The position numbers were made by a program, and so were the translations under genes. From contig NZ_JACHEP010000002.1 in NCBI RefSeq assembly GCF_014201465.1, forward strand, positions 248,001 to 312,000: DNA of 64,000 nucleotides, given 5' to 3'. Of the stretch, positions 17,864 through 20,919 are shown piece by piece. The stretch is from Anoxybacteroides tepidamans (lineage in GTDB: Bacteria; Bacillota; Bacilli; Bacillales; Anoxybacillaceae). Below the pieces are notes generated by a model that was not told where the DNA came from, did not search any database, and saw nothing but the letters and a program-made list of their open reading frames with translations. Numbering within the stretch: position 1 is the stretch's first letter; every line of letters starts with the position of its first letter.

Positions 17864-18838
17864 TTACATCCACACCTCGATATAGATTCCGAGTATTGCA
17901 AATAATAAACCAATCGCCCAAAACGTGACGACAACGCGCCACTCCGACCACCCGATGAGTTCATAGTGGTGATGCAGTGGACTCATGCGAAATACTCGTT
18001 TTCCTGTTGTTTTAAATGAAATGACTTGAATCATGACCGATAATGTTTCAATCACAAATACCCCACCGATGATGGCGAGCAATATTTCTAATTTCGTCAA
18101 AATCGCCACAGTCGCAATCGCTCCGCCTAACGCCAGCGAACCGGTATCCCCCATAAACACTTTCGCTGGATGGGCATTAAAGACGAGGAAGCCAAGAACC
18201 GATCCGACAACGGCTGTGCTAAAAATGGCGACATCATATTGTTGCTGATTCCATGCCAACACAGCATAAGCGCCAAATGCAATAGCCGCTGTTCCGGATA
18301 ACAGACCGTCAAGGCCGTCGGTTAAATTGACCGCATTCGAACCGCCCACAAGCATAAAAATCATCAATGCGATATATCCCCATCCTAAATCAAACGATAG
18401 ATTTGTTCCAGGAATATGTAAAACGGTCGAAAAGTCATGTTGGCGATAAACAATATAAAAGATGAGCGCAATGGCTAGTTGCCCGATAAGCTTTTGCTTG
18501 CTTGTTAATCCAAGATTCCGTTTCATGACGACTTTAATAAAATCATCGATAAAACCAAGCAGCCCATAGCCAATTGTAACAAATAGAAGCAAATACGTTT
18601 CGACCGTGAAATCCGCAAATTTTTTCGTCATTAAAAGAGTTGTGATCACAATCGATAATAAAATCATAATTCCCCCCATCGTTGGGGTGCCCGATTTTTT
18701 CTGATGCGACTTCGGACCTTCTTCACGTATGCTTTGCCCAAATTTTAACCTTCGTAAAAACGGAATAAAAATAGGTGACAATAACACCGTAATGAAAAAA
18801 GCTGTAACAATTGAAAACATCATGACTTGTTCTACCAT
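17864..18838 (-). CDS. mraY: Phospho-MurNAc-pentapeptide translocase MraY
   Basis: Integral membrane enzyme that transfers phospho-MurNAc-pentapeptide to undecaprenyl phosphate, forming lipid I. The 324-aa protein has about ten membrane helices and the conserved cytoplasmic motifs [23 protein letters not shown] (Asp-Asp), [34 protein letters not shown] and MSPLHHHYE. The ATG at 18838 overlaps the stop of the preceding (broken) reading frame, so it was probably translated by coupling. It precedes murD. Confidence 0.97.
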
Positions 18839-19367
18839 GACGGTTCACATCCTTCTTTCTCTTGAACACTGAACCATTTTCGCTCTAGCTGTTGCAGTTC
18901 GTTCATTACCGCTATATCATATGAACAATTTTGCGCAATATGATGCAGAACATTTATTTTTAAGTAAAATTTTACCATACCGCAATTCTCCACTCTATTT
19001 GTTTGCATATACGTTTGAACAATGGCAGCCAACGCTTTAAACGGCGAAGGACAAAAAAGAATCGGAAACTGATTTGGAAGATAGGGCGGCAACTCTCCTC
19101 CTTCTTGCCAGAGAGAAGCAATTTGCCCCGTGTTCAATTGCCGCTTTTAATTCCTCTTTCCCGACGGCTAATGGAACAAACATTCCTTTTTCTGTGAAAT
19201 AACGGATCCATAAGCGACTATTTTCATGCTTGAGTAGCGGGCAAAACTTGCTCATGGATGTTTACTTGCTGATAAGGGTCAACAAAAACGGAATGAAACA
19301 AAATGTGATCATCGGCAATTCCGCATGCAGAAGGGAACAACCGTTTGATGATTCGATATGTTAACAT
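18832..19367 (-). pseudogene. Mur-ligase N-terminal-domain-like gene broken by two frameshifts
   Basis: The 528-nt gap between murE and mraY is coding-like but split over three frames: 19367-19224 (47 aa, begins [16 protein letters not shown]), 19255-19037 (HENSRLWIRYFTEKGMFVPL) and 19137-18832 (ASLWQEGGELPPYLP, ALAAIVQTYMQ, ends EGCEPSW). Each change needs removal of one base, at CCCGC near 19240 and CAAAT near 19128, to give a single 177-codon frame. The first ATG overlaps the murE stop (TGATG) and the last stop overlaps the mraY ATG, so it was an operon gene. FVPL...AAIE.GA.ASLW...ALAAI resembles the N-terminal domain of MurF/MurE ligases; no ATP-binding domain is present. A sequencing error is possible. 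Confidence 0.6.
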
Positions 19368-20833
19368 CACGATTTCCGCTCCTTAATCGCTTCGCGGGCA
19401 ACGATGCGATCGTCAAAGTGCAAAACGCGATCCCCTATCATTTGATACGTTTCATGCCCTTTTCCTGCAATTAAAATGACGTCGCCTTCTCTCGCCTCTT
19501 GAACCGCATAACGAATCGCTTCTTTTCGATCAACAATTGAAATATAGTGTTGTCCAGCGACTCCGTCTTCCATATCTTTCAAAATATCTTCCGGACGCTC
19601 CGAACGAGGATTATCGGATGTAAAAATCGCCACATCTGCATATCGAACAGCAATTTGCGCCATCAAAGGACGTTTCGTACGATCGCGATCCCCTCCGCAG
19701 CCGACAACGACGTAAACGTTTCGTTTGGCAAATTGCCGAATCGTTTTGAGCACGTTTTCCAAACTATCCGGCGTATGGGCATAATCGACGATTACTGTAA
19801 AGTCTTGCCCTTCGTCGACCGTTTCAAACCGGCCGGAAACACCAGATATTTCTTCAACCGCCTTTACGATCGTCGAAAGTGCAACACCTGATACGAGGCA
19901 AGCTGCGGTTGCCGCTAGTATATTATACACGTTAAACTGGCCGATCAGCTTTGTTTTGACTCGAACGGTTTCAAACGGTGTCACTAAATCAAACACCATT
20001 CCACTTGGCGAAATGTCGATTCGCTTTGCCATAATGTCGCTTTCTTGATCAATGCCATATGTAATCACCGTTGCTGCTGTCATTTGTTTATATTGCTCCG
20101 ATGCTGGATCATCGTTGTTGAGCACCGCAAACTTCGGCCGTTCATGATCGAAACGGTTGCCGAGTTGTGCAAACAGCAGTCCTTTCGCCAAACGATACTC
20201 CTCCATCGTCTGATGGTAATCTAAATGATCTTGTGTTAAATTCGTAAATACGGCGACATCGTAGTCGCACCCATGAACGCGCCCCATATGCAACGCATGG
20301 GAAGATACTTCCATCACCGCGACGTCGACATGTTCATCCACCATTTGTTTAAATGCTTTTTGCAACACAAGCGATTCAGGAGTCGTATTTTGAACATCGT
20401 ATGTTTCGTCACCAATTTTGATATGAATCGTTCCGATTAACCCCGTTTTCTTTTTTGCCTTCCGAAAGATGTGATCGATGATATGGGTTGTCGTTGTTTT
20501 TCCGTTTGTTCCTGTGACTCCGATTAAATGCAGTTGATGGGTAGGCTGCCCGTAAAACGCATCAGCCAACACCGCCATCGCTCTTTTACTGTCGCGGACG
20601 ATAATGACTGGAACCGGAACATCCACATTCCGCTCCGCTACAATCGCCACCGCACCATTTTCAACCGCTTGCTTGGCAAAATCATGTCCATCGACAGTAA
20701 ACCCTTTAATGCAAATAAATAACGCTCCTTTTTTTACTTTCCGCGAATCCATTTCAATGGATGTAATGGCCGGGTTTTCACCGGCATATGTCGTAAAATC
20801 ATGCAAATAAGAAAGCAATGTTTGTAGCTTCAT
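19367..20833 (-). CDS. murE: UDP-MurNAc-tripeptide synthetase MurE (meso-DAP adding)
   Basis: Adds meso-diaminopimelate to UDP-MurNAc-L-Ala-D-Glu. The 488-aa protein has an N-terminal domain ([40 protein letters not shown]), ATP loop [19 protein letters not shown], the Mur motif [17 protein letters not shown], and a C-terminal domain with [10 protein letters not shown]. The DNPR motif ([14 protein letters not shown]) is the marker of meso-DAP specificity, which fits Bacillaceae walls. The ATG at 20833 follows GAGAGG by about 9 nt. A terminator separates it from spoVD, so murE onward may have a separate promoter. Confidence 0.96.
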
Positions 20834-20883
20834 ATGCTCATTCCTCTCATTTAAATTCCCTTGGAAGAGAATGTAGCTTTCTA

Positions 20884-20919
20884 AAAAACGGAAAAGAAGG
20901 GGTTGCAAATATCCCCCTT
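20884..20919 (-). terminator. Terminator between spoVD and murE
   Basis: AAGGGG and CCCCTT with an 11-nt loop, then TCTTTTCCGTTTTTT on the minus strand. The stem is short, so read-through is likely; it would partly separate sporulation-specific spoVD expression from the vegetative mur genes. Confidence 0.55.

What the first reader, a model, noticed from the sequence alone, without database searches (positions are those of the whole stretch)
18832..19367. Mur-ligase-like gene in the dcw cluster broken by two +1 events
The murE-mraY gap is fully coding but in three frames. Deleting one base at a CCC run and one at an AAA run restores a single 177-codon frame that is coupled at both ends (TGATG with murE, ATG/TAG with mraY). 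The restored product resembles only the N-terminal domain of MurF-type ligases. It could be a decayed second murF, a stand-alone Mur-domain protein, a programmed frameshift or a homopolymer sequencing error.
Basis: partly seen in the sequence, partly recalled or inferred. Interest (0 to 1): 0.75.

Follow-up and report, generated by a model that had tools for sequence, protein, structure and literature searches.

The report
Cell-wall gene broken by jumping element
A small, conserved but unnamed cell-wall gene is broken in this heat-loving bacterium, mainly by insertion of a tiny piece of mobile DNA related to RNA-guided IS110 transposons, rather than by two simple reading slips.

Summary
The broken frame is real, but "two +1 events" is wrong. 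The murE-mraY gap holds the relic of a stand-alone protein of about 150 aa related to the N-terminal domain of MurF. Relatives carry it intact (16 of 30 loci), and all 52 profile-selected loci checked have a 136-164 aa ORF between murE and mraY (some genomes recur). Five such proteins tested have no Pfam or NCBIfam match over cut-off. dN/dS is 0.11-0.31, and the model resembles MurE/MurF domain 1.

In the window the first break is a net 70-bp insertion of a dispersed repeat (25 matches in this genome, 36 of 41 family genomes). Its ends match those of IS110-family insertion sequences in relatives, beside which it also forms tandem arrays. I read it as a non-autonomous IS110 derivative inserted at an A-run. 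The second break is one extra A, which alone could be a sequencing error.

In the genus, three genomes keep the gene, three have deleted most of it, and this one is interrupted. A conserved CATATGATATA motif near its 3' end may be a sporulation promoter for mraY.

The parts
19367..20908 (-). murE; its stop codon overlaps the start codon of the broken gene
   Evidence: ORF list; Mur ligase middle-domain hit
18832..19367 (-). Relic of the stand-alone MurF N-domain-like gene (called murF-N here)
   Evidence: Three-frame translation; alignment with 13 intact relatives; codon comparison over 152 codons
19187..19263 (-). Copy of the dispersed mini-element; core CATCC...CACAG is 19192-19260, flanked by A-runs; interrupts murF-N
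   Evidence: Repeat hits; absent from 13 aligned relatives; shares ends with IS110 elements
19122..19124 (-). AAA run with one A more than in all 13 aligned relatives (second frameshift)
   Evidence: Alignment
18915..18943 (-). TCATATT-N13-CATATGATA: conserved DNA motif at the 3' end of murF-N, possible sigma-E-type promoter for mraY
   Evidence: Codon-level conservation; motif survey; pattern search; sigma-E letters recalled, not tested
17864..18838 (-). mraY; its start codon overlaps the stop of murF-N
   Evidence: ORF list; synteny

Best explanation
Shown: the gap holds a gene, here called murF-N, whose intact relatives encode a stand-alone protein of about 150 aa related to MurF domain 1, placed between murE and mraY and evolving under purifying selection. 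In this genome it is a pseudogene with two breaks: a net 70-bp insertion of a dispersed mini-element and one extra A. Shown: the mini-element has the same left end (about 41-46 nt) and right end (TTTTCACAGAAAA) as IS110-family insertion sequences in related genomes, and the same A-run flanks. Inferred: it is a non-autonomous derivative that an IS110 recombinase, guided by its bridge RNA, moved in trans into the A-run of murF-N; the IS110 source has since decayed here. Inferred: ribosomes starting at murF-N now stop inside the insert, so mraY relies on its own start signals. Inferred: intact murF-N is a non-catalytic protein, probably a docking or regulatory partner of the cytoplasmic Mur enzymes, and dispensable, since several relatives have lost it.
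For: Intact ORF in 16 of 30 loci and in 52 of 52 profile-selected loci between murE and mraY. dN/dS 0.11-0.31 in 15 intact pairs. 70-bp insertion and extra A against 13 of 13 relatives. Repeat in 36 of 41 family genomes, 25 matches here. IS110 coding sequence directly behind the left end in 13 of 17 left-end-only matches. Matching right end in 10 of 15 IS copies. Transposases over the Pfam cut-off for both IS110 domains. Tandem array of 3 and 5 mini-elements on either side of an IS110. MurF-N profile against the full murF of the same slot: hhalign 99.4%, E 3.9e-21. Own intact MurF lies elsewhere, beside ddl.
Against: Five IS copies gave no right end: one was cut by the locus end, the other four may be decayed or differ. 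Four of 17 left ends have no IS110 coding sequence of this group behind them; one of these is cut by a contig end. No intact IS110 of this group was found in the window's genus, and the genus's 46-47% IS110s do not share these ends. No target-site test beyond murF-N was done. RNAalifold finds no shared fold for the element and the single-copy folds are no better than shuffles. A profile search of PDB sequences found no Mur protein; Foldseek E-values for MurE and MurF are modest, 5e-3 and weaker. Protein function is untested.
Confidence: 0.85

Rival explanations
1. The repeat is the natural target of these IS110 elements, as REP sequences are for IS621, and is not derived from them.
For: IS110 elements are known to target repeats (passages of PMC11208160), and here they sit next to mini-elements.
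Against: The IS's own left end carries the same 41-46 nt as the repeat with its own sequence differences, and its right end matches too, so the similarity lies in the element ends. 13 of 17 left-end-only matches read straight into IS110 coding sequence. Several IS copies stand without any mini-element beside them.
Confidence: 0.12
2. The two breaks are sequencing or assembly errors and the gene is intact.
For: The second break is a single base in an A-run of a draft genome of 54 contigs.
Against: The first break is a 70-bp block that differs from its nearest copies by more than 10% (best 88%), so it is not a collapsed or misplaced repeat of another locus. It alone breaks the frame.
Confidence: 0.03
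3. Programmed frameshifting or another recoding lets one protein be made through the insert.
Against: The insert is a dispersed repeat, the required skip at CCC lies inside it, and 13 of 13 aligned relatives lack it; other copies of the repeat mostly read CTC there.
Confidence: 0.02
4. The intact murF-N of relatives is itself only a decaying remnant, kept for a DNA signal (a promoter for mraY) rather than for its protein.
For: The CATATGATATA motif is kept even in three genomes where the frame is dead, several lineages have lost the ORF, and MurF's substrate-loop residues are missing (motif function recalled).
Against: dN/dS is 0.11-0.31 over the whole ORF, ORF length and position are kept in distant families, and 31 of the 59 upstream sequences, including those of Geobacillus with an intact ORF, lack the motif.
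Confidence: 0.2

Closest known systems
MurF ligase (TIGR01143), N-terminal domain
   Same: Domain-1 sequence (38-45% identity to a dcw-located MurF over 78-99 residues) and MurE/MurF-like predicted fold; same chromosomal slot as a full murF in G029.
   Different: No middle or C-terminal ligase domain; the segment around the DSR and DGH motifs of MurF is changed or shortened (the role of those motifs is recalled); no Pfam or NCBIfam match over cut-off.
IS110-family insertion sequences (bridge-RNA-guided; IS621 is the studied case)
   Same: Both ends and the A-run flanks of the mini-element match IS110-family elements of related genomes. A 22-bp donor works when the RNA is supplied in trans for IS621 (passage of PMC11208160).
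   Different: About 70 bp, no coding sequence, and too short for the RNA that IS621 uses; found singly and in tandem arrays.
Prokaryotic MITEs
   Same: Small, non-coding, dispersed, related to an insertion sequence.
   Different: No terminal inverted repeats seen (only sub-terminal ATCCATGAGC/GCTCATGGAT in some copies) and no clear target-site duplication. The passages of the MITE review that I saw (PMC10969869) do not mention IS110; they mention IS1111 using a MITE as target.

Membership tests
MurF ligase | Domain 1 sequence and fold | tested here: met
   hhalign 99.4%, E 3.9e-21 against a dcw MurF; MurE/MurF among Foldseek ranks 2-33 and 37-39. A PDB sequence profile search found none.
MurF ligase | ATP-binding middle domain and C-terminal ligase domain | tested here: not met
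   Five stand-alone proteins of 148-152 aa lack PF08245 and PF02875, which the full MurF L026 has.
MurF ligase | DSR and DGH substrate-binding motifs of domain 1 (recalled) | tested here: not met
   In the alignment TDSRKEM faces VDPSQQV, and the RFDG part of ERFDGHEF is opposite a gap; role of the motifs recalled.
Pseudogene | Disabling lesions against intact orthologues in the same place | tested here: met
   70-bp insertion and extra A against 13 of 13 aligned relatives.
IS110-derived non-autonomous element | Both ends shared with IS110-family elements | tested here: met
   Left end in 13 of 17 cases followed by IS110 coding sequence; right end matched in 10 of 15 IS copies.
IS110-derived non-autonomous element | Moved in trans by an IS110 recombinase | not testable with these tools
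   Only inferred from shared ends, tandem arrays and an empty site.
Classical MITE | Terminal inverted repeats and target-site duplication | tested here: not met
   Ends TAAAACATCC and CACAGAAAA are not inverted repeats; a duplication cannot be told apart from the A-run.
Programmed frameshift gene | Conserved shift site in relatives | tested here: not met
   Relatives read one frame with no shift.
Sigma-E promoter | Match to -35 and -10 with about 12-13 bp spacing | tested here: inconclusive
   TCATATT-N13-CATATGATA at 18943-18915; spacing of 12 plus or minus 1 seen in a passage of PMC517825, letters recalled. With up to 3 mismatches, 2 matches against 0.99 expected in the window.

The most novel reading that the evidence does not exclude
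murF-N is an unrecognised single-domain, non-catalytic MurF relative that docks onto the Mur ligase-MraY assembly line of many Bacillales, with a sporulation promoter for the cortex-synthesis genes embedded in its coding sequence; and the element that broke it here belongs to a family of roughly 70-bp satellites moved in trans by RNA-guided IS110 recombinases, able to build tandem arrays at IS110 ends.
Probability: 0.3. Interest if true: 0.72.

Novelty: new variant of a known kind. Interest (0 to 1): 0.5.

Why it matters
Two things would matter. First, a conserved, unannotated MurF-domain protein sits in one of the best-studied bacterial gene clusters, so whether it tunes peptidoglycan synthesis or is a slowly vanishing relic becomes directly testable; one genus holds intact, deleted and interrupted states. 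Second, minimal IS110 satellites that share only the element's ends would show which end sequences IS110 recombinases need in nature, and would extend RNA-guided transposition to non-autonomous elements. For annotation, the case shows how a short mobile repeat can look like a point frameshift.

Tried and rejected
Homopolymer explanation of the first break: rejected, because the aligned relatives lack the whole block. Programmed frameshift: rejected for the same reason. Structured RNA: Rfam gave three chance-level hits in 18700-19500, all below gathering score; single copies fold no better than shuffles as DNA, and RNAalifold found 4 pairs with no compensatory change. By eye the GAGNAA/TTNCTC hairpin shows paired changes between copies, but I did not score it. 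IS200/IS605 (PATE-like) origin: considered on the hairpins, dropped once the ends matched IS110 elements. TIGR array: considered because of the tandem copies; dropped because units are identical and match IS110 ends (passages of PMC12045711).

Does the window copy alone sit in a gene? The stop-free-frame test after leaving the element out was inconclusive: 84 aa for the window copy, but 59-95 aa for six other copies, 0 for ten. Terminator-like hairpin beside the element: 4 of 17 copies against 65 of 1020 random positions in the same loci; weak enrichment only. Near-invariant sites: the window departs at 4 of 42, but the intact G001 gene departs at 4 of 44, so this does not date the decay. The sigma-70 scan found no promoter-like site on the minus strand in 18700-19450. 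The IS110 block had one 87-base match in plasmids and none in phages. First DNA alignment of copies (A2) was in mixed orientation and was discarded; A3 replaces it and leaves out two partial copies, L051 and L054. A MurE end query read in the wrong frame was redone. Tree of murF-N against MurF: not built, about 80 shared residues.

Literature: searches gave no listed paper on an IS110-derived mini-element in these bacteria, and searches 72 and 96 none on a stand-alone MurF domain between murE and mraY. These were listings; I saw passages only of PMC11208160, PMC8024623, PMC517825, PMC3762067, PMC10969869 and PMC12045711.

Full report
What the finding says and what is there. The window belongs to a draft genome of 3.39 Mb in 54 contigs that groups with Anoxybacillus species; matching contig lengths identify relatives G003 as A. 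tepidamans PS2, G001 as Anoxybacillus sp. J5B_2022, G004 as A. rupiensis and G011 as A. caldiproteolyticus. Between murE (19367-20908, minus) and mraY (17864-18838, minus) the three forward frames of the minus strand are protein-like in turn.

The gene in relatives. One search fetched 30 loci. Sixteen have one intact ORF in the slot; eight have a short or empty gap; one (L026) has a full MurF frame of 451 aa; three have no murE within the fetched stretch; one (L034) is a repeat copy elsewhere; one is the window itself. In 15 of the 16 the ORF overlaps mraY's start and in 15 of 16 it overlaps the murE stop (L033 is the exception at both ends). All 52 loci later selected by profile or pattern (22 named, 30 best) have a 136-164 aa ORF between murE and mraY; some are the same genomes as before. 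In 397 genomes of the order, 341 have a profile match. Among the printed rows I counted 80 by eye, the window aside, with a short frame of 109-190 aa (four of them with an in-frame stop); the other printed rows I took for full MurF frames, although a few (313 aa) are shorter. Rows below the print limit were not seen.

What the protein is. Five stand-alone proteins had no Pfam or NCBIfam match over cut-off; the weak ones were to unrelated families. A profile of 16 against PDB sequences gave nothing Mur-like. BLASTP of one against the full MurF of L026 gave 38% over 99 residues, E 7e-20, and profile comparison gave 99.4% (E 3.9e-21) against that MurF, 96.8% (2.1e-10) against the window genome's own MurF and 17.6% (0.0014) against MurE. 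AlphaFold2 gave mean pLDDT 77.5, about 90 for the first 100 residues, with the five models spread from 77.5 to 41.4. Foldseek's top hit was a plastid RNA polymerase chain (E 5e-4), followed by MurE and MurF entries from 5e-3. So it is MurF domain 1 without the ligase domains. The window genome's complete MurF is elsewhere, next to ddl.

Selection. Nei-Gojobori dN/dS was 0.11-0.31 in 15 of 16 intact pairs (one pair saturated; several dS are above 1), and 0.16-0.25 for the window's in-frame pieces against four relatives. The gene is under purifying selection where intact, and the window copy broke too recently to have lost that mark. The window departs from 4 of 42 near-invariant sites, but intact G001 does so at 4 of 44.

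First break. Against 13 of 13 aligned relatives the window has a net 70-bp insertion. It matches a dispersed repeat: 19 matches in this genome by BLASTN, 25 by a sequence model, with matches in 36 of 41 genomes of the family and up to 54 in one. G003 and G004, both with the intact gene, have none. In 17 copies here the core is preceded by AAA in all and followed by GAAAA in 16. The A. tepidamans site has seven As where the insert lies, so the element appears to have entered an A-run.

What the element is. In G048 three copies and five copies stand head to tail on either side of a gene whose product has both IS110-family domains. Of 17 matches to the left part of the repeat only, 13 run straight into IS110 coding sequence; four do not, one because the contig ends. 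The IS elements begin CATCCATGAG... or GATCCATGGG... after an A-run, and in 10 of 15 copies end GATTTTCAC(A/G) before GAAA-like sequence (one of those ten is cut right after the end). These are the ends of the mini-element. The 46-47% identical IS110s of G002 and G005 do not share them, so the match is not a general IS110 feature. This genome has only IS110 fragments. IS621, the studied IS110 element, recombines a 22-bp donor when its RNA is given in trans (passage of PMC11208160), which makes trans-mobilisation plausible. G. kaustophilus HTA426 has ten predicted IS110 copies (passage of PMC8024623).

Second break. One extra A in the AAA run at 19122-19124 against 13 of 13 relatives. It could be real or a sequencing error; the insertion alone already breaks the frame.

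A signal inside the gene. In 13 intact relatives, 58 columns keep one residue in at least 12; in 9 of these every sequence with that residue uses the same codon. Four of the nine are the neighbouring codons TCA TAT GAT ATA. The motif lies 58-83 nt before mraY in 28 of 59 distinct upstream sequences, from more than one family, and is kept in G002, G005 and G006 where most of the ORF is gone. It is absent from the Geobacillus sequences examined. In the window it reads TCATATT-N13-CATATGATA, which fits my recollection of sigma-E promoters; a passage of PMC517825 gives the spacing as 12 plus or minus 1 and lists spoVE among sigma-E cortex genes. This is a suggestion, chosen after seeing the data.

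State within the genus. Of seven genomes, three have the gene intact (G001, G003, G004), three have lost most of it (G002, G005, G006) and the window's is interrupted. The gene is thus dispensable here, though conserved widely.

Verdict. The best explanation is a recent pseudogene of a conserved single-domain MurF relative, broken by an IS110-related mini-element. The element's parentage rests on shared ends; its mobility and the protein's function are inferred.

Noticed in passing
window 18915-18943 (minus strand): TCATATT-N13-CATATGATA: conserved at codon level and kept in relatives whose ORF is dead; possible sporulation (sigma-E) promoter for mraY.
   Followed up: partly
L107 1067-3213 (G048:C1): Tandem arrays of three and five ~75-bp mini-elements flanking an IS110-family gene; shorter tandem arrays in L110, L111, L114 and L134.
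   Followed up: partly
L015, L016, L021 (G002, G005, G006): Same-genus genomes with most of murF-N deleted but its 3' tail and the CATATGATATA motif kept.
   Followed up: yes
G116:C5:170743-171207, G096:C184:30714-31160, G111:C2:214917-215363, G028:C1:1823924-1824361: Matches to the murF-N profile with one in-frame stop each; possible independent decay in other families, or matches running past the true end.
   Followed up: no
L112 1640-1715 (G000:C4:88139-88214): Solitary IS110 left end without its gene; a TnpB-like ORF lies about 1.2 kb further on (L112 2869-4053, name from memory).
   Followed up: no
L113 5311-8069 (G017): IS110 gene split into two parts about 1.4 kb apart, as if another element had inserted.
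   Followed up: no
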